Made by a program: the position numbers and the translations under genes. Source: a virus. Taken from it: DNA of 42,127 nucleotides. The notes beneath the pieces were generated by a model. It worked only from the letters and a program-made list of their open reading frames with translations, searched no databases and had not been told where the DNA came from. Where the stretch lies: IMG/VR virus record IMGVR_UViG_3300010403_000034, positions 1 to 42,127 of that record; one strand, 5' to 3'. Every line of letters begins with the position of its first letter. Position 1 is the stretch's first letter. Of the stretch, positions 2,747 through 23,708 are shown piece by piece.

Positions 2747-3154
2747 ATGAAACGGATTGGTCGCAACGTGCGCATGTACCGCGAGCGCCATGAGTGGACC
2801 CAGGAGTATCTGGCGGGTCTGGTGGGCTACGCGCAAGCGGCGATGATTTCGCAAATCGAGGATGGCCTCAAGTCGCCGTCGCTGGAGAAGGCCCAGGACC
2901 TGGCGATTCAGTTGGGGGTGTCGCTCTCCGATCTAGTGGGTGACGCGCCGCCGCCGCATGTCGTGACGAACAATGCGACGGGCGATCATACCGTGATTCA
3001 AAATATCGAGGGGCACTACTGCGCCATTACGCGCGAGGACCTCACGGCCATGGTGCAGGCGGAAGTGGCGCGGGGCCTCGAGGAGCTCAAGGCGATGCTG
3101 CAGACGGCACTGGCCGAGATCAAGGTCTGGGTTCGGCAGGGGGAGTGCCGATAA
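2747..3154 (+). CDS. XRE-family helix-turn-helix regulator with C-terminal helical domain (rightward)
   Basis: A 135-residue product. The start is placed at ATG 2747, which has an AGGAGC site, rather than at an upstream in-frame codon. Residues about 3-62 form an XRE helix-turn-helix (RNVRMYRERHEWTQEYLAG, AAMISQIEDGLKSPSLEKAQ). A linker NNATGDHTVIQN leads to a C-terminal amphipathic helix (LTAMVQAEVARGLEELKAM) that could mediate oligomerisation. It is divergent from the XRE gene at 2246 and is the only plus-strand gene in this part of the window. It ends before a strong hairpin and convergent minus-strand genes. It is the likely repressor or antirepressor half of the switch. Confidence 0.88.
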   Translation: MKRIGRNVRMYRERHEWTQEYLAGLVGYAQAAMISQIEDGLKSPSLEKAQDLAIQLGVSLSDLVGDAPPPHVVTNNATGDHTVIQNIEGHYCAITREDLTAMVQAEVARGLEELKAMLQTALAEIKVWVRQGECR

Positions 3155-7236: not shown

Positions 7237-8115
7237 TTAGGCGTCGTCCTGCCCCGGCTCCCGCGTCACGAGCTCCGGTCCCAGGATATGATCGACCGCC
7301 TTCTGCGCCTGCCCTGCTGCAGTGACCAGCAGTTTCACATCGCCGCGTAGGCACTCGAGCCAGCCCTTGAGATACGCCGCGCTGTTATCGATCACGTCGT
7401 TCTCGATGCCGCAGTGGCCGCACAGATAGGCGGCGCCCATCTCGGCAACGAGCTCCTCCCTGGCATAGCGCGGCGTCCCGAACGCGACGGCGTCCACCAG
7501 GCTCTCGCGGCTCAGGCGGTCCGTGTGCCCGGTTGAATGCGTCAGCTCATGGAAGAGCGTGGCGTAGTAGGCTTCGCGCTTGGGGAAGCGGGCCAGGTCG
7601 GGCATGTGCACCTCGTCCGTGCGCGGGCGGTAGAAGGCCTGGCTGCTGCCGTGCATGATCGCCGGGCGTAGCGGGTAGTTGGTCACCACCTTCTCGCACT
7701 GCTCGAGGGGTGTGTGATCGAAGACCGTCTCCTCCGGGAGGGCGGGTATGGCCACGCCCTCAAGCTGCGGGGCACAGAACACATTGTAATACTTGAGGAC
7801 AAAGCGGCTCTCGATCTCGCCGTCGCCGTTGGTCCCTTCGTACTTCTTCCAGAACACAATCGGCGTCGACTTCTCGCCCTTCTTGACGTTCCCTCCGGCC
7901 TGTCGGACCTGGTTGAACGTCGCCCAGAACGGCGAGCTATACGACTGCGCGCCGAGCATCCACACGTTGATGCCACGGTAGGCGCGCTGGCTGAAGAGGT
8001 TGCGGGGCAGACCGGCCTGGCTGTTCCACGGTTTCGTCCAGGCGCAGACGCCGTCTTCCAGCAGCTTCGTGATGCGGTCGGTGATAATCTGATAGGCAAT
8101 GCTCATGGTCGCCAT
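7237..8115 (-). CDS. ardC: ArdC-like antirestriction protein with zinc metallopeptidase domain
   Basis: A 292-residue product with the two-domain layout of ArdC/DUF1738 proteins. The N-terminal region, about 5-130, is of the ssDNA-binding type (ITKLLEDGVCAWTKPW, NVWML, GGNVKKGEKSTPIVFWK). The C-terminal zincin domain carries HELTHSTGH at about residues 187-195 (HExxH with a third ligand), followed by a conserved E/A-E-ELVAEMGA helix. ArdC proteins protect incoming DNA against host restriction and bind single-stranded DNA. Length matches the family. It is the most clearly functional gene of the minus-strand operon and supports an early, host-defence role for that operon. Whether the peptidase site is active is unknown. 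Confidence 0.9.
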   Translation of the reverse strand: MATMSIAYQIITDRITKLLEDGVCAWTKPWNSQAGLPRNLFSQRAYRGINVWMLGAQSYSSPFWATFNQVRQAGGNVKKGEKSTPIVFWKKYEGTNGDGEIESRFVLKYYNVFCAPQLEGVAIPALPEETVFDHTPLEQCEKVVTNYPLRPAIMHGSSQAFYRPRTDEVHMPDLARFPKREAYYATLFHELTHSTGHTDRLSRESLVDAVAFGTPRYAREELVAEMGAAYLCGHCGIENDVIDNSAAYLKGWLECLRGDVKLLVTAAGQAQKAVDHILGPELVTREPGQDDA

Positions 8116-13426: not shown

Positions 13427-13882
13427 CTAGCGCGTCCGGTCCTGGGTCACGAGTTCCGACCGGATCTGCATGAGGAGACGGCCCAGGTGGTTCTCCCCCT
13501 GGCCCTGGCACACGCCCCAGAAGCGGTCATGCCAATAATTGCCTTCAATCAGCTCGACCTCCCCGGTGGAGAGCAGGGCCTTGGTCATCGTGGGATACGT
13601 GGTGAACTTCTCACGCACCAGATGGCGCATGATGTCCACTTTGATGCCATCCCACCCGGGCCGCAGCCTGACGCGGCGGCCAAGGCGTTTGGCGGCGCCG
13701 GGCGAGGGGGCCAGGCGTATCTGCTCGCGTGCCGCCAGGTCGAGGGTCTTGGCCGCCTGGAAGGCATGCTCCACAGTCGGATAGCGCACGCTGCGGTAGA
13801 CGACGGGCGTGGCGTGAAAGTTACTGAGGAAGGCCCACTCGCCCGTAAACGAGGTAATGGGCTCGGTGGCGATACAGGTCAT
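13427..13882 (-). CDS. NADAR-family (YbiA-like) N-glycosidase
   Basis: The start is set at ATG 13882 behind AAGGAGT, giving 151 residues, the normal family length. The conserved features of NADAR/DUF1768 are present: EWAFLSNFHATPV, the YPTVEHAFQAAKTLD segment with its EH pair, and the C-terminal WHDRFWGVCQGQGENHLGRLLMQIR. Family members hydrolyse N-glycosidic bonds in riboflavin-pathway intermediates (YbiA) or remove ADP-ribose from modified nucleic acid (NADAR in DarT-type systems). Phage copies are therefore candidates for counter-defence or NAD-related metabolism. The window also encodes an ART-like protein (23936), which could be functionally linked. Confidence 0.9.
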   Translation of the reverse strand: MTCIATEPITSFTGEWAFLSNFHATPVVYRSVRYPTVEHAFQAAKTLDLAAREQIRLAPSPGAAKRLGRRVRLRPGWDGIKVDIMRHLVREKFTTYPTMTKALLSTGEVELIEGNYWHDRFWGVCQGQGENHLGRLLMQIRSELVTQDRTR

Positions 13883-13947: not shown

Positions 13948-14511
13948 CTACGCGGCGCGCACGGCGCAGGCACCGAGGGCCGCCAGGGTCTGCGCGCTGG
14001 CGGCCAGATCACGCTGGCGTTTCGCGGCCTGCGCGCGGCGGGCTTTCCGGGTGGGTGCCTGGGCGGGCGTGGCGCTCGCCGCACGCTGCGTCTCCTGCCA
14101 CTCGGCGTGTGCGGCCTGGGCAAGCTGGGCGGCGCCTGCCTCAGCGACACGGCCAAGGGTGGACGCGTCGTGGTTGGCGTAGACACAGGGATCGATCCAG
14201 CCCTGGCGCACGCCCCACGCCCAGGCGTTCATGATGACGTGGCCGTGGCAGAGTTTCGGGGCACAGGAACAGACGAGCACGCTATCGGCCTTGAGGCTGC
14301 GGAGGGCCTCGATCACGTGCGCCTGGCCTTCCTGGATCTGCGTCCACAGCCAGCGGCGGTACTGGCGCAGGACCACCGCCCGCTCCTTGGGGCTGTCGCC
14401 GCGCCAGGGGAACGGATTGGCCAGCGGGGACGCCGGGCGGTTCTGGGTCGCGCGGCCGATATAGACGGTACGGGACGAGGGACGGGTCTCTTGCATATGG
14501 GCAACGTACAT
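13948..14511 (-). CDS. DUF4326 domain protein (187 aa), first gene of the leftward operon
   Basis: The start is set at ATG 14511; a later ATG within the leader is possible. The N-terminal 100 residues contain RTVYIGRATQNRPASPLANPF, an arginine-rich helix and the end LVCSCAPKLCHGHVI. This is the DUF4326 signature, with its conserved C-x-C-x-P-x-x-CHG metal-like site. The C-terminal third is alanine/arginine-rich and probably disordered or coiled-coil. DUF4326 proteins are common in phages, and their role is unknown. This is the promoter-proximal gene of the long minus-strand operon. Confidence 0.85.
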   Translation of the reverse strand: MYVAHMQETRPSSRTVYIGRATQNRPASPLANPFPWRGDSPKERAVVLRQYRRWLWTQIQEGQAHVIEALRSLKADSVLVCSCAPKLCHGHVIMNAWAWGVRQGWIDPCVYANHDASTLGRVAEAGAAQLAQAAHAEWQETQRAASATPAQAPTRKARRAQAAKRQRDLAASAQTLAALGACAVRAA

Positions 14512-14960: not shown

Positions 14961-15276
14961 GGGCGTCAAGTGGAGCAGTGGGTCTGGTACTTGCATGCAG
15001 TGACTACCTTGGCGGGACATGAAGTCCAGGCCGTCTCGTCCTATGCTTTCCCATACTGCGGTCTACTGCCGAGGCTGGCAGTACCACAACGGGGCTCGTC
15101 ACCCCGTACTATGCGCTGGCTCTCCAGGCAATTGATACCTTCAGCTAGCACTGTCTCCCGACAGGACTTGGGCCTACACTGGTATCCAGAGAGCTATAAG
15201 AAAGAGCGGGTGGGGGAGATTGCCCCCGCGTGCCAGGTGTCCAGCCCGGCTGCGCAACCACAACATATTGAACTAT

Positions 15277-15318
15277 ATTAATTGTACAACTAATCACGGT
15301 ATAAAACATCTTTTTATA
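15277..15318. other. AT-rich island with palindromes (possible unwinding element or operator)
   Basis: An 18-bp near-perfect palindrome, ATTAATTGTACAACTAAT (15277-15294, one mismatched pair), is followed by a 7-bp AT stem TATAAAA / TTTTATA with a 5-nt loop (15300-15318). It sits in about 180 bp of AT-rich DNA, strongly unlike the GC-rich surroundings. This is the sort of site found at replication origins or strong regulated promoters; neither is proven. Confidence 0.4.
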
Positions 15319-16427
15319 TGTTTCTAACCTCTATAAGTGGTTGTATTTATATATGTTACGGCTATTACGACATACCTTAGCAGGCTATCATCCATTAGGA
15401 ACTATTATAATAATTTCTTTGCTGATAGGTCGCTCTGGCATGGCCCTTGCAATCCCCCCACCCTGATAGTCCTCCGAAGATCCCCAAACGGTGGTAGGGG
15501 CTGTGACTGTCTTGGATGCCATCATGGAGGGCGTCTGCCGTGTTGCCCCCCTCCGATACGCTGATCCCCGCGCCATGATGGCGCTACGCGGCGACACGCT
15601 GCGCGGCACCCACGCTGCACTGGGGACCCCCCCTGCGCAGGCTCGTGAGGGATGGCGCGGCGCGTCGTGCAGGGGGCACGACCCCTGCGCTCCCCAGCCA
15701 TAGAAGCCCCTGGGCGGGACGCGAGAAGGGGCGCTACCTTCGTCCTAGTGGGGCTTGAGGGGGGCTGTTGCCATCCCCTCATCTCCCCACTGCCTCCCTG
15801 CTGATGTTCGAGCGTAGCGAGTCGTGTTCCTTCCTCTCAGTGGGGTGCATGGCCGTCCTCGGCCACAGGGGGGCGGATGCCACCCCCTCTCTCCCCAGCG
15901 CCCTACGCCTACGCCGCCCTCCCCCGACGTGAGCCTGCGAACGCGACTACCACGCGACCAGGCCAGACTCTGAAGGCCGCATAGGCCGCTACCTCAGCCC
16001 CGCAGGGTGGGTCTGGGGGCGCCAGCCAGCCCAGGCTGCCTCCAGTACAATAATCACGCGACGGCCGCCCGCTCGCACCGAGCCCCGCGGCCTGCCTCGT
16101 GTGGGTGAATGCGCAGCAGAGGGGGCAGACGTCCCGGCTGCCATCCCTCCTCCTCACTCCCCTCTGAAGCCGCCACTGACTCCCCTCCCGTCGCCAACGA
16201 GCGACACCACTGACGCGCGACGGCGCTACCTTCCACTCCCCCTCCCAGCGAGGACGACCTCCGTCCTTGTGACCACGCCACGCCGCACGACTGACGCCGC
16301 CATCATCCGAGTCCCAGCGTCCACACCACGCCGCCACAGACGCACGCCGCATCTTCAAGTACGCCCCCCACGCCACAACACACGCCAGACACCTCGACGC
16401 ACGCCGTACACCCAGACACACGCCAGA

Positions 16428-16484
16428 CACACGCCAGTGACACACGCCAGTGACACACGCCAGTGACACACGCCAGTGACACAC
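16428..16484. repeat. 13-bp tandem repeat (minisatellite)
   Basis: Four exact copies of GCCAGTGACACAC-type units start at 16433, 16446, 16459 and 16472. They are preceded by degenerate CACGCCAGACAC units from about 16380. The unit length is not a multiple of three, and no gene is supported across it. Confidence 0.85.
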
Positions 16485-16896: not shown

Positions 16897-17472
16897 ATGA
16901 CGGACATCTACCAGACGGATCTCACGGCGGGGGCGCCGGACTGGCCGGTGGGGAAGAAGTGGCACTGGCATGAGCAGGTGCTCTATACGTTTCCCGCGCA
17001 GTGGTGGGAGCTGGCGCAGCTCGGGCTCTCCAGCACCCAGTACCGCGTGCTGCTCGCGCTGCTGGCCTGCTGCGATTGGGGCAATCGGTGTCGCGCCACG
17101 TGCGCCTATCTCGGGCGCCGGATCGGGCTGCACCGCAGTACCGTCTCGCGCATCCTCCGCACCTTAGTGGCCCGCCAGCTCTGCTACATCGAGAGCGCCC
17201 CCGGCCAGCGCGATCACGTCGTCGTGCTCTCCCCCGCGCTCGCCTGGAAAGGCCGACCCTGGCATCTGTCCTACGCCCGGGACGCCTTCCTCGCGGCCTG
17301 GCGTCTCCGGGCCCTGGCGTCTGCCAGCGCCACCAGCAGCCAGGCCACCGACGCCCTGGCGTCCCACCCCCGCGTCCGCGTGGGGTCCGAGCCACCCCCC
17401 ACCCGGTCGAGGATTGGGGGGGCCGCCCCATTTCTCCCCCACCCCCCCTTCGAGGAAGTGGGTCCTCTCTGA
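16897..17472 (+). CDS. Winged-helix DNA-binding protein, possible replication initiator or regulator (191 aa)
   Basis: The start is set at ATG 16897. An upstream in-frame start at 16852 adds an arginine/glycine-rich stretch that looks non-coding. Residues about 45-105 form a winged helix: LSSTQYRVLLALLACCDWGN, then the recognition segment LGRRIGLHRSTVSRILRTLVARQL and the strand pair CYIESAPGQRDHVVVL. This resembles plasmid/phage initiators and MarR-like regulators (d-x-x-N-x-x-x-a-T-x-x-x-L-g). The C-terminal 50 residues are serine/proline-rich and disordered. It is the first rightward gene after the 2.4-kb control region. Replication initiation at the adjacent repeats, or control of the packaging operon, are both possible. 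Confidence 0.75.
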   Translation: MTDIYQTDLTAGAPDWPVGKKWHWHEQVLYTFPAQWWELAQLGLSSTQYRVLLALLACCDWGNRCRATCAYLGRRIGLHRSTVSRILRTLVARQLCYIESAPGQRDHVVVLSPALAWKGRPWHLSYARDAFLAAWRLRALASASATSSQATDALASHPRVRVGSEPPPTRSRIGGAAPFLPHPPFEEVGPL

Positions 17473-17499: not shown

Positions 17500-17529
17500 T
17501 TCACTCGGTCTGCTAGTGTGTGCTATACT
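17500..17529 (+). promoter_or_regulatory. Candidate rightward sigma70-like promoter of the packaging operon
   Basis: TTCACT (17500-17505) and TATACT (17524-17529) with an 18-bp spacer. It lies between the winged-helix gene and the box/8-nt-spacer array, whose first box begins two bases after the -10 element. The array would therefore form the leader of the transcript leading to the terminase genes. Confidence 0.5.
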
Positions 17530-17530
17530 C

Positions 17531-18355
17531 ACCGCCGTGCCTCTGCGGCGTCCGGTGTAAAGGAGATACCCGATTTGTAAGAGGCGCTGGGAGGATGCGA
17601 GAGGGCCGTGGCAAACGAGGCGCCGTGGTCTACGAGCTTCCCGGGCAGCGTCAGCGTGCCGAGGGCACAAAGGAGTGGCCCATGGTCAATGAGGGGCCGT
17701 GTGCCGCCAGCTTCCCGCACCCCAGGTGTCAGCGGACAGCGGGCCGTCGAAACAGCGCGTCCCGAAACCATGAGCCCGTACCGCTGGTGGCGAGCGTGCC
17801 GTGAACGAGGCGCGTCTCTGGAGCCCGGATGGACAGAGCTCGCCGTCGATCATGCGGCCGTTGTGGGTGAGTTCCCCGTGGAAACCGCGCCGTACCAAAC
17901 GAGCCCGCCGTCTAGGTCGCGCGTCCGGGTGTCATGAGCGGCCTGGTGGAGAGGAGGCCCTGGCGTGGTCAGCGCTTCGGAGCGAGGGAGGCCCGAGCTC
18001 TGAGAGGTCCCCGTTGTCAGAGAGGCGTGCCGTTCCCGCAGTGCTCGCCGGAGCAGGAGAGCTCGACAAGGAAGAGCTTGCCGATGAATAGGAGAGTCCG
18101 GCTCATACGAGCCCCCCGAATCCAGAGAGGTCGCAGTGGTGGAGGGTCCCGAACGCCAAGAGTCCGTCATTGAAGAGCCCCCCGAATCCAGGGAGGCCTG
18201 GCAGGCCGAAGTCCTCCTGCTGCTGCGCGTCCTCGTCGCTGGACAGAAAGAGCTCACCGAGGCACTCGTGCGTCTGGCCGGGCGATCGCAGCTTCCCGAT
18301 TCCCAGCAGCCCGCGGACGTCTCCAAAGAGCTTCCCGGCGAGGAAGAGCCGCTCG
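17531..18355 (+). repeat. Box / 8-nt spacer array, segment A
   Basis: Short GC boxes beginning GAG (or GCG/CAG) and ending CCG are separated by exactly eight variable bases. Examples: GAGATACCCG at 17563, spacer ATTTGTAA; GAGCTTCCCG at 17634, spacer GGCAGCGT; GAGCTCGCCG at 17836, spacer TCGATCAT; GAGTTCCCCG at 17869; GAGCCCCCCG at 18109 and 18175. Box length varies between about 6 and 12, but the spacer stays at eight in nearly every case. The last part runs through the 18136 open frame (GAGCTTCCCG at 18328, spacer GCGAGGAA). Open frames in this segment before 18136 are poor and I do not call genes there. Confidence 0.85.
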
Positions 18356-18447
18356 GGACGTGGATTCTCACCGATCAGCGCGTGCACGGGCTCGAGGCGG
18401 CGATTGAACAGGAACAACGGGTCAGAGGACAGGCGTATGGCGGGTAG
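18136..18447 (+). CDS. Hypothetical acidic, helical protein preceding the small terminase candidate (103 aa)
   Basis: A GTG start at 18136 follows GAGAGG by five bases. The product has an acidic N-terminus (VEGPERQESVIEEPPESRE), a convincing helix (AWQAEVLLLLRVLVAGQKELTEALVRLAG), an ELP/EEP-rich linker and a coiled C-terminus (DQRVHGLEAAIEQEQRVRG). The ends overlap the box array, and ELPE/EEPPE residues come from box sequence. Its stop overlaps the next gene by 11 bp, which supports coupling. It could be a small structural or terminase-associated protein; it is not recognised. Confidence 0.55.
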   Translation: MVEGPERQESVIEEPPESREAWQAEVLLLLRVLVAGQKELTEALVRLAGRSQLPDSQQPADVSKELPGEEEPLGTWILTDQRVHGLEAAIEQEQRVRGQAYGG

Positions 18448-18784
18448 GCAGCAGTACCAGCACGGCGGCATCAGTCAGCACGACCGCACGGCGTTTGCCC
18501 AGGCGGTGCTGGAGGTGCTGGAGGCCCACGGCGATGTGGCCAGTGAGCTGACCTGGCAGCGGCTCTCCAAGGTGATTGCGGAATACTGGCTGGTGTTCCA
18601 GACCGACCAGAGCCCGCTGAGTACCTGGAACATGCTGACCCGGTGCGCGGAAACGGTCCTCCGGATTCGCGCCTTTGGGGCCGGGCGTGGCGCCGGCAGT
18701 GGCGCCGATGCCCTCGAGGAGTTCCGCAGTTTTATGGGGGAGGTGCTCGGCGAGCGGCCCGGCAAGACCGAGCTCCCAGAGTAA
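18437..18784 (+). CDS. Candidate small terminase subunit (115 aa)
   Basis: ATG 18437 follows AGAGGACA. The 115-residue product has an N-terminal basic segment (MAGRQQYQHGG), a mostly helical centre (DRTAFAQAVLEVLEAHGDVASELTWQRLSKVIAEYW) and a C-terminal acidic helix. Position directly ahead of the large terminase gene, size, and an N-terminal helical DNA-binding-like region suggest a small terminase subunit. I cannot match it to a named family, so the call rests on context. The region between it and the large subunit is entirely array plus hairpin. Confidence 0.55.
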   Translation: MAGRQQYQHGGISQHDRTAFAQAVLEVLEAHGDVASELTWQRLSKVIAEYWLVFQTDQSPLSTWNMLTRCAETVLRIRAFGAGRGAGSGADALEEFRSFMGEVLGERPGKTELPE

Positions 18785-18787
18785 GCA

Positions 18788-19135
18788 GAGGCGCCGACTC
18801 AACAGAGCTGCCCGAAAGACCGTAGCGCCGTCCCCACAGCGTTGCCCGAAAGACCGCAGTGCCGGGGTAAAGGAGCTGCCCGAAAGACCGTAGCGCCGAG
18901 TGCCGTGAGATCGCCGTAGGGGGAAGCGCCGGCACATCGAAGCCCCCCATCACCAAGGAGCGCCGGAGGTGAAGAGCCCCCCGCATAAGAAGAGCGCCGG
19001 AGAAGCTGAGCCCCCCGTGAACGAGGAGCGCCGCTTCTCCGGCGCCCCCCGAAGAGATCGAGCGCCGCGCCAGACACGAAGAGCCCCCCGTGAGCGAAGA
19101 GCGCCACCCGACTTGACGAGGCGCCGCGCCGCCCG
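18788..19135 (+). repeat. Box / 8-nt spacer array, segment B, with exact 34-bp period
   Basis: The most regular stretch. Ten-base boxes start at 18805, 18839, 18873 and 18907 (34 bp apart), then 18940, 18974, 19008 and 19042 (33, 34, 34, 34), then 19081. Eight- to nine-base boxes of the GAGCGCCG type fall between them, and every gap is eight bases (for example GAGGTGAA, CATAAGAA, GAGAAGCT, TGAACGAG). The first units use GAGCTGCCCG with the spacer AAAGACCG repeated three times, indicating recent duplication; later ones use GAGCCCCCCG with unrelated spacers. 34 is not a multiple of three and no open frame fits. Confidence 0.92.
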
Positions 19136-19154
19136 TATAACTCCCGCATGACTT

Positions 19155-19184
19155 GAGACCCTGGACTCCCAAGCCCAGGGTCTC
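19155..19184 (+). promoter_or_regulatory. Hairpin abutting the large terminase start codon
   Basis: GAGACCCTGG pairs with CCAGGGTCTC (10-bp perfect stem, 10-nt loop). The stem ends two bases before ATG 19187. The only Shine-Dalgarno-like bases (AGGG) lie inside its 3' arm, so translation of the terminase would need the hairpin to open. It could instead be a terminator separating the array from the gene, but there is no T-tract. Confidence 0.6.
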
Positions 19185-19186
19185 CT

Positions 19187-20899
19187 ATGCCTGCTGCCCA
19201 GACCTACCGCCGTCTCATGGAACGCCTGCCGATCCGCACCCCCGACTTGCGGATCGTCCCCCTCCAGTTCAACGCCGCCCAGGAACGCCTCTTTGATGTG
19301 ATCGCCGACGATCTCGAAGCCTCCGCCCCGATCAGAGTCATCATTCTCAAACCACGCCGCACCGGTATGAGCACGTTCTGCGAAGCGCTCTTGACCGCGG
19401 CCTGCATCCTGAACCCCCAGGTCCGCGCCAAAGTCGTGGCGCATGAGAGTATCGCCACGCAGAATATCTGGGAAATGAGCGAGCTGTTCGTGAATCAGAG
19501 CCCGCTGCGGGCCATCGGCGAGGTGAAGGGCCACCGCATCAACTTTGGCACCTCTCGGCTCGATCTGGCCACTGCAGGATCCCCCAACGCCGCGCGGGGC
19601 TCGGACCTCACCGTGTGCCACCTCTCGGAAGTCTCCGCCTGGAAAGATCCCGAGGCCATGTTGGCGACCTTACAATGTTTGCCCCGCGAGTATGGCCACT
19701 TCAGTATCGCCCTGATTGAATCGACGGCCCGTGGCATGACCGGGCAGGGCGAGCTGTTCTACCAGCACTGGCTCAGGGCCCAGGCCGGCAAGAGCCCGTT
19801 CACGCCGTTTTTTTTCGGCTGGCTCGACTTCCCGCAATACTCCGACCCGCCCTATGACGTTCCGCTCGAGGACCTGGACGCCGATGAGACGGCGCTCTAC
19901 GCCGAGATGGGTGCGACGTGGGGACAACTGCGCTGGCGCCGGCGTATTCTGGCGGCAGACTGTGAGGACGATCCGGAGCTCTTTGCCCAGGAGTACCCGG
20001 CCACGCCCGATGAGGCGTTCATCCAGTCCGGGCTGCCGTTCTTTTCCCGGGCGCAGCTCCTCTGGCTCGATCAGGACATGGAACAGGGCTCGGTCGGCCG
20101 GCTGGAGGAGCGCGGCGGCCGCCTCCGCTTCGTCGAAGACCGCGGCGGCTGGCTCACCATGTGGCGCCGGCCGCGTGACGGACATCAGTATGTGATCGGC
20201 GCCGATAGCTCCATGGGCCTGGAAGCCAGTGGCACGGCGGGCAGTCACTCCAGGTCTGCCGCCGAGGTGCTCGACATGGAGAGCCTCGAGCAAGTCGCCG
20301 AGTACGACGCGTCCAGTGCGCCGCACGTCTTCGCCAGACACCTCGCCATGCTGGGCCGCTTCTACAAAGAGGCGCTGCTCTGTCCCGAGGTGCAAAGTAG
20401 CGGCGGCGGCGGCGGCCGCGAGCTGCTCGTCTACCTCCGCGAGACGCACAACTACTTCCACCTGCACATCTGGAAGCAGCCCGATAGGATCAGGCAGATC
20501 CAGGGCAACCTCTACGGCTACGAAACGAACGCGCGCACGCGGCCACGGATGATCGCCCGCTTGCGCGAGCACATGATGGAGCGCAGCTGTACACTGCACT
20601 CCCGGGCGCTCCTGTCGCAGATCCGCAACTTTGGCGAGAACGACTCCGGACGCCTGGAAGCCCTCGCCGGGCATGACGATTTATTATTTGCATTAATGCT
20701 GGCCATGATTAGCCGCAGCGAAAATTATGTGGCGCTCACCCTGCCCGGCACGCAGAAGGACCCGGTGTATGGCGACGTGCGGCTCACGCAGCTCGGGCTG
20801 GCAAACTGGCCGGATGTCGACGATCTCTACGCGCGGCATCAAGAGATTCTCGCCGCCGAGCAGATGAAGACCCAGGCGGTGGACTTCCTCCGGGCTTGA
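19187..20899 (+). CDS. terL: Terminase large subunit (ATPase and nuclease)
   Basis: A 570-residue DNA-packaging motor. A Walker A-like KPRRTGMST lies at residues 55-63, and Walker B is in LTVCHLSEVSAW at about 141-152 (catalytic acidic residue in the SE pair). IALIESTARG at about 173-182 is the coupling motif. The RNase-H-like nuclease domain has candidate metal ligands in IGADSSMG (about 338), LCPEVQSSG (about 402) and GHDDLLFAL (about 493-501). The protein cuts concatemeric DNA and pumps it into the procapsid through the portal. No Shine-Dalgarno lies free upstream; a hairpin covers it. Confidence 0.95.
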   Translation: MPAAQTYRRLMERLPIRTPDLRIVPLQFNAAQERLFDVIADDLEASAPIRVIILKPRRTGMSTFCEALLTAACILNPQVRAKVVAHESIATQNIWEMSELFVNQSPLRAIGEVKGHRINFGTSRLDLATAGSPNAARGSDLTVCHLSEVSAWKDPEAMLATLQCLPREYGHFSIALIESTARGMTGQGELFYQHWLRAQAGKSPFTPFFFGWLDFPQYSDPPYDVPLEDLDADETALYAEMGATWGQLRWRRRILAADCEDDPELFAQEYPATPDEAFIQSGLPFFSRAQLLWLDQDMEQGSVGRLEERGGRLRFVEDRGGWLTMWRRPRDGHQYVIGADSSMGLEASGTAGSHSRSAAEVLDMESLEQVAEYDASSAPHVFARHLAMLGRFYKEALLCPEVQSSGGGGGRELLVYLRETHNYFHLHIWKQPDRIRQIQGNLYGYETNARTRPRMIARLREHMMERSCTLHSRALLSQIRNFGENDSGRLEALAGHDDLLFALMLAMISRSENYVALTLPGTQKDPVYGDVRLTQLGLANWPDVDDLYARHQEILAAEQMKTQAVDFLRA

Positions 20900-20932
20900 C
20901 GGGTGCACGGCACAGCGTCTACCCTCTAGGGG

Positions 20933-21049
20933 CAGGCGCCAGATGAGGAGAGATCCCCGTTGCTGCCCCGCGCCGTCCAGTCAGCGATACCCGGATGGAG
21001 ACAGCGCCGCCCTCATGAGTTCGCCGTAAGAAGGAACCGCGATGACCTG
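20933..21049 (+). repeat. Box / 8-nt spacer array, segment C
   Basis: Directly after the large terminase gene the same grammar resumes: GAGATCCCCG (20950), spacer TTGCTGCC, CCGCGCCG, spacer TCCAGTCA, GCGATACCCG (20984, exactly 34 bp later), spacer GATGGAGA, CAGCGCCG. It fades near the ribosome-binding site of the next gene. Confidence 0.85.
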
Positions 21050-21062
21050 CTGGGAGGGACAG

Positions 21063-21320
21063 ATGCCATACATGAACGAGGACCAACTGCGCCAGGCCAC
21101 GCGGGCCTACTTCCGGGCCGCGATGGACCGCGCCTGGCAGGAGGCCTGGAGGACGCCGCTCAATCACGGAACGACCAGCCAGGCGACTGGCCCGGCATGG
21201 GCGGCGACCGAGCCAACTGAGCCCCCCGCCTCGAAGGAGTCCAGGCGGACGTCGCTGCCCAGGGCGAGCGCCAGCGACAAGGCTGGCGCGATTGACGTGG
21301 CATTTGTGCGGGTGCGCTGA
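21063..21320 (+). CDS. Small hypothetical protein (85 aa)
   Basis: ATG 21063 follows GGGAGGGAC. The N-terminal half is helical (NEDQLRQATRAYFRAAMDRAWQEAW). The C-terminal half is disordered (TEPTEPPASKESRRTS) and ends basic. The disordered part carries array-type DNA: CCG at 21208, exactly eight bases, then GAGCCCCCCG at 21219, eight bases, then GAG. It lies between terminase and portal genes; role unknown. Confidence 0.65.
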   Translation: MPYMNEDQLRQATRAYFRAAMDRAWQEAWRTPLNHGTTSQATGPAWAATEPTEPPASKESRRTSLPRASASDKAGAIDVAFVRVR

Positions 21321-21327
21321 TTTCCTG

Positions 21328-21552
21328 GAGCTCCCCGCTTCCACAGAGCGCTGAAACGGACGGGAGCGCCGAGGGCGCGTGCAGCGCTGGAGCGCAAGAG
21401 CCGTCCGAACTCTCAGAGCGCCGGCTTGGTGCAGCCCCCCGGATGGATTGAGCGCTCATGTTCCAGGAGCCCCCCGAAGATGCAGAGGCGCCGAGGGCGT
21501 GGAGAGACCCATGAGAACGGAGCCCCGCATACGCAGAGCTCCCCAAGGAGCA
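21328..21552 (+). repeat. Box / 8-nt spacer array, segment D
   Basis: An uninterrupted run from GAGCTCCCCG (21328) through GGGAGCGCCG (21362), GAGCCGTCCG (21398), CAGCCCCCCG (21432) and a GGAGCCCCCCG box (21466) to GAGCTCCCC (21536). All gaps are eight bases (CTTCCACA, AAACGGAC, AACTCTCA, GCTTGGTG, GATGGATT, ATGTTCCA, AAGATGCA, CATACGCA). The final spacer, AAGGAGCA, serves as part of the ribosome-binding site of the next gene. Confidence 0.9.
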
Positions 21553-21557
21553 GGAGT

Positions 21558-21797
21558 ATGGCCACAGTCGTTTGCCCGGCCTGTCAGGAACACCAGCGGG
21601 GACGCGTCGAGATGACGCCCACCGGCGAAACGCCGACCGCCTGGCTGTTCAGATGTCGCGTGTGCGATGGACGCCGCGCGGTCACGAAGAACCACATCGG
21701 TGGCACCCTCGGTGCAGGAGATAGACGCGATGACGGTAGTAAGAACGCCATCGGGCGCGGCTTTGGCGGCGGCCCGCGCTACCGACCCGTTACCTAG
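21558..21797 (+). CDS. Small zinc-ribbon protein (79 aa)
   Basis: ATG 21558 follows AGGAG. MATVVCPACQEHQRGRVEM ... LFRCRVCDGRRAVTKNHIGG gives a clean CxxC-x(n)-CxxC zinc ribbon over residues 6-43, followed by a glycine/arginine-rich tail. Similar small ribbons occur near phage packaging genes, with unknown roles. Its last 68 bp overlap the next gene in another frame. Confidence 0.75.
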   Translation: MATVVCPACQEHQRGRVEMTPTGETPTAWLFRCRVCDGRRAVTKNHIGGTLGAGDRRDDGSKNAIGRGFGGGPRYRPVT

Positions 21798-22419
21798 AGA
21801 CGCGAAGACCGGACGCCTGCTCCCGCGCGGGTCCGCCGCTCTGGAGCCTCCCGTGATTGCAGAGACCGAGGAACAGGATCCCTCCGATGAGGCAGCAGTC
21901 GCACTCCTCGCGCTCCCCGAACCATCAGAGCTGCTGGCGCCCGGCCACCCCGAGCTCCCCGTTGAAGAAGAGGCCGATCAGGAAGAGCTCACCGAGCTGG
22001 AACAGCGCGCGCTGGGGCAGCAACGGGCCGCCCTGGTACGCGTCAAGGCCCTCCTCGAGGAGGCCTTGCGCTTAGGCGTTGACTATAAGCTCATCGAGAA
22101 ACATCCGGACGGCACGCTGGTGCTGGCCGGCCAAAGCCACACCAACCGGCGCGAGTCCTCCGACTGTGCCTGCCCCGCGTGCTTTCCCTGGGCGCAGCAG
22201 CACTGGTGGTGTGTGGTCTGTAGCAGTGGCCCGCATGACTGGCAGATGGTCAAACCGCAATATGAGCGGCAGACACTCAAACCAGGCGGGATTGAGGGAG
22301 CGCGGCAAGCGGCCTGTAGCGCGCAGTGCGCCCGCGACTTCCTGAGTAGTCTGGGGCGGCAACCGTCTGGCGCGCCCATCGGCCGCGGCATCGATCCGAC
22401 GCTCGGGCTGCCAGGATAG
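21730..22419 (+). CDS. Acidic-linker zinc-binding protein (229 aa)
   Basis: ATG 21730 follows AGGAGA. Residues 1-35 are basic, about 36-100 a disordered acidic stretch (ETEEQDPSDEAAV ... HPELPVEEEADQEELTELEQ), then a helix (AALVRVKALLEEALRLG). A cysteine-rich domain at about 145-215 follows (CACPACFPW, CVVCSSGPHDW, CSAQCARDF), a probable treble-clef metal site. The acidic linker is encoded by box-array DNA. It could be a packaging accessory or virion protein; not recognised. It overlaps the upstream zinc-ribbon gene by 68 bp. Confidence 0.7.
   Translation: MTVVRTPSGAALAAARATDPLPRDAKTGRLLPRGSAALEPPVIAETEEQDPSDEAAVALLALPEPSELLAPGHPELPVEEEADQEELTELEQRALGQQRAALVRVKALLEEALRLGVDYKLIEKHPDGTLVLAGQSHTNRRESSDCACPACFPWAQQHWWCVVCSSGPHDWQMVKPQYERQTLKPGGIEGARQAACSAQCARDFLSSLGRQPSGAPIGRGIDPTLGLPG
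21833..22010 (+). repeat. Box / 8-nt spacer array, segment E (inside coding sequence)
   Basis: Within the gene at 21730: CCG, eight bases, GAGCCTCCCG (21844), TGATTGCA, GAGACCG, AGGAACAG, a box ending CTCCG, ATGAGGCA. Later GAGCTCCCCG (21952), TTGAAGAA, GAGGCCG, ATCAGGAA, GAGCTCACCG (21985), AGCTGGAA. The spacing rule holds although this is translated, and box length is not in multiples of three. Confidence 0.8.
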
Positions 22420-22604
22420 AGGCGCTCCCCGCCTCTCTTACGCACTTGCCGCGCAAAGCGTGCGCCGCTACGCTGGAGCTCCCCGAAGAAATTGCGCGCC
22501 GTGCTCACGCTCCGCTCCGGAACAGCGCCGTTACTACTGAGCCTCCCCGTCTTGGAGGAGCGTGCGCCGTTCAGTTAGAGCTCCCCGCAAGATAGGAGCG
22601 CGCG
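22420..22604 (+). repeat. Box / 8-nt spacer array, segment F (last segment)
   Basis: From the stop of the 21730 gene: a CTCCCCG box, CCTCTCTT, a TTGCCG box, CGCAAAGC, GTGCGCCG, CTACGCTG, GAGCTCCCCG (22476), AAGAAATT, GCGCGCCG, TGCTCACG; then after one irregular step CAGCGCCG, TTACTACT, a CTCCCCG box, TCTTGGAG, a GTGCGCCG box, TTCAGTTA, GAGCTCCCCG (22578), CAAGATAG. It ends in a CG-alternating run near 22620. Confidence 0.88.
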
Positions 22605-22801
22605 TCTCGCTCGCGCGCGCGCTTCTCACTTTTTTGTCGGACTGCCTGCAGTTTTGTCTTTGACACCCTCGTTCGTTCTCTTCCATACTCCTGCACAATG
22701 TATTCCTCACGAAACACCTTGGGTATGTCGAGGCCCTGGACCGCCGTGACACCATACCGCGTGGGTATGGCGCCACATTGGGTAAAGGTCCCAGGATGCA
22801 C
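22571..22801 (-). CDS. Possible small basic protein (76 aa), minus strand
   Basis: The frame opens with GTG at 22801 and yields a plausible helical, basic product (GLDIPKVFREEYIVQEYGRE, then SKTKLQAVRQKSEKRARERDARSY). Against it: the ribosome-binding site is weak, the 3' end lies in the repeat array, and a 7-bp hairpin (CCATACC / GGTATGG, 22752-22770) occurs inside. It could be a genuine small gene travelling with the nearby HNH nuclease, or chance. Confidence 0.4.
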   Translation of the reverse strand: MHPGTFTQCGAIPTRYGVTAVQGLDIPKVFREEYIVQEYGRERTRVSKTKLQAVRQKSEKRARERDARSYLAGSSN

Positions 22802-23062: not shown

Positions 23063-23581
23063 TTAGGGCATGTAGAATTCCCGCTTCTTGGGACGGCTCG
23101 AGTTGCAGACGAGATGCACCAGTCGCACGTTTGCCGGGAGATTCTCGCCACCAAGGCTACGCGGAATGATGTGATCCAGGGACATCGTATCCCAGGTCAA
23201 ACGCTTCGCACACTCGCCACAGTCCCACCCGTCACGCTCAAGCAACAGGATGAACAGCAGCTCTCGATACGCCTTACGCGTGTCATAGCGCCCTCCTGTT
23301 CTGAGGGTACGAGGACGGAGACCCAGCGCAACCTCTTCACGGTATTTCTTCAGCCAGGCACCAGCCTTCTCTTTGGTACGAGCACGGAATTCTGGGTCAG
23401 TGACATAGCGTGTGCGGCGAGAGATTTGCTGACGCATCAGGCTCGCCTGGTAGCGCTCTTCTTTGAGCACTTGCTGTTCGGGAGTCGTAAAGCGGGCGTA
23501 GTAGCAGGGACCAGAGCAGTACTTGCGATCATCCGTTCCTTGAAAAGACGTACCACAGACGGGACAGGTGATGGTGTCCAT
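23063..23581 (-). CDS. HNH endonuclease (likely free-standing homing nuclease)
   Basis: The start is set at ATG 23581 behind GGAGGT, giving 172 residues. The N-terminus has a zinc-finger-like CPVCGTSFQGTDDRKYCSGPC. The C-terminal HNH motif lies at about 125-165 (DGWDCGECAKRL, then LDHIIPRSLGGENLPANVRLVHLVCNSSR), with the DH pair, the asparagine and CxxC/C-N zinc ligands. The gene is on the opposite strand in the middle of the packaging genes, the usual position of a phage homing endonuclease that spreads by cutting cognate loci. It is convergent with the 51-aa basic gene. Confidence 0.9.
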   Translation of the reverse strand: MDTITCPVCGTSFQGTDDRKYCSGPCYYARFTTPEQQVLKEERYQASLMRQQISRRTRYVTDPEFRARTKEKAGAWLKKYREEVALGLRPRTLRTGGRYDTRKAYRELLFILLLERDGWDCGECAKRLTWDTMSLDHIIPRSLGGENLPANVRLVHLVCNSSRPKKREFYMP

Positions 23582-23708
23582 CGCAACCTCCGAGTGAGTT
23601 GCTCCGAGTATGGGGATGCGCGGCAACCTGCTCGGAAACAGGCTTTTCGGGCTGCAGACCCTAGCCGCACACGACTTCCCATTCTAGCACGGACAGGGAT
23701 GGGGGTCT

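What the first reader, a model, noticed from the sequence alone, without database searches (positions are those of the whole stretch)
17531..22604. Box / exactly-eight-base spacer array threaded around the terminase genes
In six segments on the plus strand (17531-18355, 18788-19135, 20933-21049, 21328-21552, 21833-22010, 22420-22604) short GC boxes that start GAG (or GCG/CAG) and end CCG are separated by exactly eight bases of variable sequence. Seen by eye there are roughly 75-80 such junctions, all in one orientation. Box interiors vary in sequence and length, but the spacer length almost never does. The grammar CCG-N8-GAG is that of a bipartite protein recognition site repeated many times. 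It does not match CRISPR (no constant repeat), iterons (no constant full motif), or a coding repeat (not divisible by three). I do not recognise any described system.
Basis: seen in the sequence. Interest (0 to 1): 0.93.

Follow-up and report, generated by a model that had tools for sequence, protein, structure and literature searches.

The report
Ruler-spaced repeat array in phage operon
The untranslated gaps of one packaging-gene operon in a small group of soil phages are filled with about a hundred short sequence tags held exactly eight letters apart and all pointing the same way, probably a dense set of landing sites for an unidentified protein that controls that operon.

Summary
In the six segments CCG-N8-GAG occurs 45 times on the plus strand, against 0-4 times at neighbouring spacer lengths, 0 on the minus strand and 4.1 +/- 1.9 in dinucleotide shuffles. 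Alternation holds in 60 of 62 consecutive steps in two phages. Inside open reading frames the short box drops to 7 nt, so the period becomes 33 and stays in frame while N8 is kept (p = 1.6e-4). The array runs from just after a promoter-like site to an intrinsic terminator, through one terminase operon only: 24-30 sites per noncoding kb against 0.7-1.8 elsewhere. A second phage species has it at the same gene junctions with unrelated spacers. A collinear relative (TerL 53% identical) packs the same genes without it. Scans of viral and prokaryotic genome collections found no other case. Best reading: an orientation-dependent array of bipartite protein sites, probably on dsDNA, acting on transcription, like mycobacteriophage stoperators but far denser and unrelated. 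RNA-level binding is the main rival. The binding protein is unknown.

The parts
17500..17529 (+). sigma70-like promoter with extended -10 (TTCACT-N18-TGcTATACT ends at 17529), just upstream of the array
   Evidence: 9/12 match, one of 2 found where shuffles give 0.6. The other array phage (L006 2337-2345) reads TGGTATAGT just before its array (read by eye; the scan did not list it). Consensus match only.
17546..18355 (+). array A: untranslated up to 18135, then inside ORF1
   Evidence: chain of boxes joined by N8; 33-bp period inside the coding part
18136..18447 (+). ORF1 (103 aa), N-terminal and middle parts encoded by array; C-terminus (LGTWIL..EQRVRGQAYGG) conserved
   Evidence: 59% identical to L006:3471-3815
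18437..18784 (+). putative small terminase (115 aa); its C-terminal ELPE is written by a 10-nt box (GAGCTCCCAG)
   Evidence: position next to terL; no family hit. 60% identical in L006; 41% homologue in the arrayless phage L141
18752..19147 (+). array B, between terS and terL, the most regular one (GAGCGCCG N8 GAGCCCCCCG N8)
   Evidence: Tandem Repeats Finder period 34
19155..19184 (+). RNA hairpin directly 5' of the terL start codon, present in both array phages with one A-U to G-C compensatory change
   Evidence: z = -4.5 in the window and -2.5 in L006; not seen before terL of L141
19187..20899 (+). terminase large subunit (570 aa), no array inside
   Evidence: PHROG 2, E = 1.7e-19
20937..21030 (+). 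array C, between terL and ORF 21042
21042..21320 (+). ORF of 92 aa in the operon; holds box-N8-box at 21208-21239
   Evidence: 54% identical in L006
21328..21557 (+). array D
21558..21797 (+). small zinc-ribbon-like protein (79 aa); homologues in the arrayless L060 and L141
   Evidence: weak Pfam zf-LITAF-like, E = 0.018
21730..22419 (+). ORF (229 aa) whose acidic N-terminal linker is encoded by array E; cysteine-rich C-terminal part conserved
   Evidence: 61% identical in L006; homologue in L141
21833..22010 (+). array E, inside the coding sequence; box lengths 10/7, period 33
22420..22605 (+). array F, whose last box runs into the terminator stem. The near-identical contig L004 carries a 48-bp longer, fully regular version
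22594..22635 (+). intrinsic terminator: GC hairpin followed by TTTTTT
   Evidence: window; L006 8160-8189 has a 13-pair stem followed by TTTTTTTT at the same place
22660..22689 (+). next promoter (TTGACA-N18-CATACT), beyond the array
   Evidence: same arrangement in L006 8220-8249
16897..17472 (+). winged-helix (MarR_2/HTH_36-like) protein encoded directly upstream of the array; candidate, unproven, for the binding protein
   Evidence: MarR_2 E = 8.8e-6, HTH_36 E = 1.2e-5; 55% identical in L006; winged-helix order of elements, low confidence; not found in L141 or L060

Best explanation
The segments form one interrupted array of roughly 100 asymmetric protein-binding sites, each CYG-N8-GAG. The sites are packed head to tail with alternating 4-nt and 1-3-nt gaps, so the strict unit is CYG-N8-GAG-N4-CCG-N8-GAG, about 32 bp, plus a flexible 1-3 nt joint. 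Two G/C-rich triplets 11 bp apart, one helical turn, lie on the same face of dsDNA, as expected for a dimeric helix-turn-helix protein or a protein with two DNA-binding domains. All sites point along transcription and fill the untranslated parts of a single terminase operon from promoter to terminator. I therefore propose that a protein, phage-encoded or host, coats the operon and gates RNA polymerase passage or initiation in an orientation-dependent way. This would act like mycobacteriophage stoperators, holding back packaging genes until late infection or in a prophage. Shown here: the grammar, alternation, strand, confinement, in-frame adaptation, spacer randomness, positional conservation in a second phage, and absence in collinear relatives. 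Inferred: that selection acts on box sequence and spacing; that the ligand is a protein; that dsDNA rather than RNA is read; that the effect is on transcription. The adjacent winged-helix gene is only a candidate reader.
For: Spacing: CYG-N8-GAG 48 (window) and 75 (second phage) against 0-6 at neighbouring lengths, 0-1 on the minus strand and 5-6 in shuffles. Alternation in 60 of 62 steps. Spacer positions carry <=0.14 bit while box positions carry 1.4-2 bits, the latter partly fixed by the search pattern. Spacer 8-mers show almost no relatedness: 5 and 4 pairs at >=7/8 identity against 1.9 and 2.3 expected; a young neutral satellite would not look like this. In coding stretches the period is 33 (6 of 7) against 34 in noncoding stretches (5 of 44 are 33), p = 1.6e-4, with N8 unchanged. 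Sites per noncoding kb are 23.7 and 30.1 inside the operon against 0.7 and 1.8 outside. No covariation between spacers, and an RNA folding z of -0.3 for the longest array, speak against a structured RNA. A rigid ruler, and arrays inside translated frames, fit dsDNA better than single-stranded RNA. A precedent exists: asymmetric 13-mer sites in short intergenic spaces whose orientation follows transcription and which fail when reversed (PMC9283540).
Against: No binding protein is identified. The winged-helix candidate rests on position and on presence in two phages. Modules are not in helical phase with each other (18 and 16 bp offsets), so cooperative binding on one face is not supported. The array tracks one transcription unit exactly and overlaps ribosome-binding sites of ORF 21042 and the zinc-ribbon gene in L006, which equally fits an RNA-level role. 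A conserved hairpin at the terL start suggests that RNA control exists in this operon. Only two independent phages carry the array.
Confidence: 0.4

Rival explanations
1. RNA-level array: the sense transcript carries about 100 single-stranded sites read by an RNA-binding protein with two triplet-binding surfaces, giving translational control, protection, antitermination or a protein sponge.
For: Sense orientation throughout, limits set by promoter and terminator, placement in untranslated gaps and over ribosome-binding sites, and a conserved hairpin at the terL start codon.
Against: Exact 8-nt spacing with almost no 7s or 9s is unusual for a flexible single strand. No covariation or folding excess in array A, although array B has z = -2.65. 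Arrays lie inside translated frames. No Rfam family in this stretch passes its gathering score. The spacing differs from TRAP's 11 (G/U)AG repeats (PMC4027176).
Confidence: 0.27
2. Satellite with weak constraint: a 34-bp tandem repeat grew by duplication at gene junctions and is mostly neutral or selfish.
For: Collinear relatives without arrays have compact junctions. Local box dialects suggest local duplication. Some near-duplicate units exist (18109/18175; 18791-18899). A 48-bp length difference separates near-identical strains.
Against: Spacers are nearly saturated while boxes and lengths are kept. In-frame adaptation changes the short box but not N8. The 34-bp grammar persists across phages whose array sequences no longer align.
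Confidence: 0.13
3. Packaging-related (pac-like) array bound by the small terminase.
For: It surrounds terS and terL; small terminase rings can wrap DNA over several contacts (general knowledge).
Against: L141 has a TerS homologue and no array. Sites extend 1.7 kb beyond terL and stop at a transcription terminator. About 100 sites far exceed known pac sites.
Confidence: 0.08
4. Replication iterons of the adjacent winged-helix, replication-initiator-like protein.
For: Weak PHROG hits to replication initiation proteins; direct repeats of average 17 bp pitch, and lambda O iterons also lie in coding sequence (general knowledge).
Against: A better origin candidate lies elsewhere: a noncoding region with an AT-rich core and its own 13-bp repeats at 14.5-16.9 kb, in part conserved in L006. 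The array is confined to a transcription unit.
Confidence: 0.07

Closest known systems
Stoperators of cluster A mycobacteriophages (L5, TipsytheTRex; PMC9283540)
   Same: Asymmetric repressor sites in short intergenic spaces; orientation follows transcription; recognition by two domains of one protein
   Different: Stoperators are more than twenty single 13-mers scattered over the genome. Here about 100 sites form contiguous alternating arrays in one operon. The motif is unrelated, and no L5-like repressor was identified
TRAP (G/U)AG repeat sites in trp leader RNA (PMC4027176)
   Same: Many GAG triplets at regular intervals in a leader transcript
   Different: TRAP sites are 11 closely spaced triplets; here GAG recurs every 16 or 18 nt with a second fixed CYG triplet, over 5 kb, in a phage
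MraZ boxes and other direct-repeat operators (general knowledge)
   Same: Direct repeats at a fixed short spacing bound by an oligomeric DNA-binding protein
   Different: 3-4 repeats at one promoter, with a different motif and spacer
Plasmid and phage iterons (general knowledge)
   Same: Direct repeats of about 17-22 bp in one orientation, sometimes inside genes
   Different: Iterons share a constant motif along the unit and sit at an origin; here 8 of every 16-18 bp are random and the array lies along a terminase operon
Type I restriction sites (3 bp-N8-3/4 bp, general knowledge)
   Same: Bipartite motif with fixed-length random spacer
   Different: Phages tend to avoid such sites; CCG/CGG offers no adenine for the second methylation; the box alternation would be meaningless

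Membership tests
Stoperator system | Asymmetric sites oriented with transcription | tested here: met
   48 and 75 sense sites against 1 and 0 antisense sites in the segments
Stoperator system | Sites in short intergenic spaces | tested here: met
   Operon noncoding density 24-30 per kb; start and stop codon contexts
Stoperator system | Sites distributed across the genome | tested here: not met
   Confined to one operon
Stoperator system | Repressor binds sites and stops elongation; two-domain L5-like repressor encoded | not testable with these tools
   No binding data. XRE-type regulators (2747-3154, 2246-2449) and a winged-helix protein are encoded, none shown to be L5-like
CRISPR array | Constant repeat of about 23-47 bp with unique spacers of similar length | tested here: not met
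   Boxes of 7-10 nt with variable interiors; 8-nt spacers
TRAP binding site | About 11 (G/U)AG triplets, 2-3 nt apart | tested here: not met
   GAG-to-GAG distance peaks at 16 and 18, not 5-6
Structured RNA element | Conserved base pairing | tested here: not met
   Spacer pairing equals shuffled (3.17 vs 3.09); the only covarying columns are the adjacent GC/CG of the short box
pac / TerS recognition array | Goes with the TerS family | tested here: not met
   TerS homologue in L141 (41% identity) without array
Replication iterons | Located at an origin and bound by the initiator | tested here: inconclusive
   A separate origin-like region exists at 14.5-16.9 kb; no binding data

The most novel reading that the evidence does not exclude
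A previously undescribed class of cis-element: a two-phase 'ruler' array, alternating 10- and 8-nt boxes with exact N8 spacers, that coats one whole terminase transcription unit. It adapts to the reading frame where it enters genes (34 to 33 bp), and a dedicated protein reads it to silence, insulate or time the terminase operon.
Probability: 0.3. Interest if true: 0.85.

Novelty: new variant of a known kind. Interest (0 to 1): 0.66.

Why it matters
If the array is a binding track, it is among the densest natural protein-site arrays seen in a phage. It offers a directly testable case of a nucleic-acid ruler that natural selection holds in noncoding DNA and bends to the reading frame inside genes. 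It would reveal a new way for phages to time or silence packaging genes, and a DNA- or RNA-binding protein with an unusual bipartite specificity. The presence/absence contrast with collinear relatives suggests that it arose in one lineage, so its origin can be studied.

Tried and rejected
- Collagen-like coding repeats: freshwater contigs hit by the generic pattern (L026, L030, L034, L035, L037, L038, L040, L041, L044) have N8 peaks on the antisense of repetitive coding sequence; L026, L030, L035, L037 and L038 were read and look like Gly-X-Y repeats. Not the same thing.
- GTDB hits (L045-L054): GC-rich chance matches, or unrelated Bacteroidales GAGAACTG repeats.
- Wider TerL family: 79 further terminase loci carry no such array, including L060 (44% TerL). 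The fixed-spacing scan of four distant phages (L055-L058) was empty too.
- RNAP elemental pause consensus (G-10 Y-1 G+1): the Y-G part fits CYG, but the base at -10 is not constrained in either box (reasoning), so rejected.
- Rho-utilisation (C over G): C is not in excess of G (0.334/0.339 and 0.286/0.330).
- Coding on either strand: open frames over array A are not conserved between phages.
- Hidden helices between spacers: none.
- Literature searches found no description of such an array.
- Structure models of TerS (pLDDT 61) and the winged-helix protein (pLDDT 55) were too weak to decide function. The fold search gave MarR-type regulators first, with no hit at E <= 0.001.
Full report
WHAT WAS CHECKED. 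The window is a 42,127-bp virus record of IMG/VR. It has a P22-like portal, a terminase large subunit at 19187-20899 and a major head protein, so it is a tailed phage, probably podovirus-like. The claimed motif is real and far above chance. In the six stated segments CCG-N8-GAG occurs 45 times on the plus strand, 0 on the minus strand, 0-4 times at N4-N7 and N9-N12, and 4.1 +/- 1.9 times in dinucleotide shuffles.

REAL ANATOMY. A parse that lets spacer (4-12) and box interior (1-6) vary freely returns spacer 8 in 49 of 72 links in the window and 82 of 93 in the second phage. Boxes come in two kinds. Long boxes are GAG-N4-CCG (10 nt; usually GAGCTnCCCG or GAGCCCCCCG). Short boxes are GAG-N2-CYG (8 nt; GAGCGCCG, GAGCGCTG, GAGGCCTG). 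They alternate in 20 of 21 consecutive steps in the window and 40 of 41 in the second phage, so the repeat is a 34-bp asymmetric dimer. Distances between like boxes peak at 34. Spacers carry almost no information. Those before a short box are slightly A-rich. Spacer 8-mers are hardly more alike than expected, apart from a few recent unit duplications.

WHERE IT IS. The array begins just after a sigma70-like promoter with an extended -10 (17500-17529). It continues through the untranslated gaps of the operon ORF1-terS-terL-ORF92-zinc ribbon-ORF229 and ends in the stem of an intrinsic terminator (22594-22635). The next promoter follows at 22660-22689. The second phage has the same layout, with a 13-pair terminator stem and T8 and an extended -10 (TGGTATAGT, read by eye). 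Junction density is 23.7 per noncoding kb inside the operon and 0.7 outside; in the second phage it is 30.1 and 1.8. All segments point along transcription.

ENTRY INTO GENES. The array also writes parts of proteins: the N-terminal and middle linkers of ORF1, the acidic N-terminal linker of ORF 21730-22419, and the last residues of the putative TerS (ELPE = GAGCTCCCAGAG). These protein segments are the diverged parts in alignments with the second phage. There the like-box distance is 33 in 6 of 7 cases, against 5 of 44 in noncoding stretches (p = 1.6e-4). The short box gives up one base to keep the frame; N8 does not change. This points to the spacer as the constrained element.

RELATIVES. L004 (IMG/VR 3300005441_000028) is nearly the same phage (>99% identical). 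It has a 48-bp longer, fully regular array F and a 366-bp insertion at window 18780. L006 (3300031538_000002) and L005 (3300032075_000044; identical to L006 where they overlap) are a second species: TerL 87%, portal 89-90%. Its arrays sit at the same junctions, but array sequences mostly do not align. L141 (3300005518_000025) is collinear (TerL 53%, portal 54%, TerS 41%, zinc ribbon and ORF229 homologues). It has abutting genes and no array. L060 (TerL 44%) is likewise compact. Array-like patterns were sought in 2.9 million viral contigs with four patterns and in 85,000 prokaryote genomes with one. Nothing comparable was found beyond these two phages. Exact patterns would miss strongly degenerate arrays, and metagenome contigs could not be scanned.

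HOW IT PROBABLY WORKS. Boxes are conserved and spacing is exact while spacers are near saturation. That calls for purifying selection on a nucleic-acid signal, not a neutral satellite. CYG and GAG centres are 11 bp apart, one turn of B-DNA. C-Y-x-N8-x-R-G is a weak dyad, as expected for a dimeric helix-turn-helix protein, yet its asymmetry is kept. The strict part is CYG-N8-GAG-N4-CCG-N8-GAG; the short-box joint flexes by 1-3 nt. Single-strand RNA would be expected to tolerate 7 or 9; folding (z = -0.3) and covariation tests show no RNA structure; and arrays lie in translated frames. So a dsDNA reader is somewhat more likely. The orientation and confinement to one transcription unit resemble stoperators, whose function is lost when sites are reversed (PMC9283540). 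The best guess is therefore an orientation-dependent protein track that gates transcription of the terminase operon. Against this stand the hairpin at the terL start codon, present in both array phages with one compensatory change, and boxes that double as ribosome-binding sites. RNA-level control therefore remains a serious rival. The winged-helix gene next to the array (MarR_2/HTH_36-like; 55% identical in the two array phages; not found in L141 or L060) is the obvious candidate reader, but that is only position and co-occurrence in two phages.

VERDICT. Its general kind (a protein-site array) is known. Its density, alternation, frame adaptation and confinement are not matched by any family I tested. 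Function is inferred, not shown.

Noticed in passing
window 19155-19184; L006 4960-5000: Strong hairpin covering the terL ribosome-binding region in both array phages, with a conserved core (CCUGGACUCC..AGCCCAGG) and one A-U to G-C compensatory change; a possible translational operator. Absent before terL in L141.
   Followed up: partly
window 18780; L004 4229-4594: A 366-bp insertion in L004, absent in the window, has hairpin ends (..TCTCCGCCCTGAAGGACGGAGCTTTACG) that look like an IS200/IS605-type non-autonomous element; no match among plasmids or in Rfam.
   Followed up: partly
window 16369-16484: 13-bp tandem repeat (GACACACGCCAGT, about 5-10 copies; L004 has one more copy) in a 2.4-kb noncoding region with an AT-rich core at about 15260-15420; likely replication origin. 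L006 1-1740 has a similar AT-rich core followed by a shared CTCTGGCATrGCCCTTGCAAT motif.
   Followed up: partly
window 23602-23671 (minus): Rfam int-alpA RNA (RF02996), 41.1 bits, above its gathering score, in the region of an HNH endonuclease gene on the minus strand (23063-23626).
   Followed up: no
window 13427-13882, 13948-14511, 7237-8115 (minus): NADAR-domain protein, DUF4326 protein and an ArdC-like anti-restriction protein in the leftward gene block; possible counter-defence genes.
   Followed up: no
window 22420-22450 vs L004 8228-8300: A 48-bp deletion in the window relative to L004 is out of register with the 34-bp unit, so arrays also change length by events not guided by the repeat.
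   Followed up: yes
L006 6895-6925 and 7180-7204: In the second phage the last short box before ORF 6925 and before the zinc-ribbon gene (AAGGAGCGCGTATG, AAGGAGCGTGTATG) doubles as the Shine-Dalgarno sequence.
   Followed up: partly
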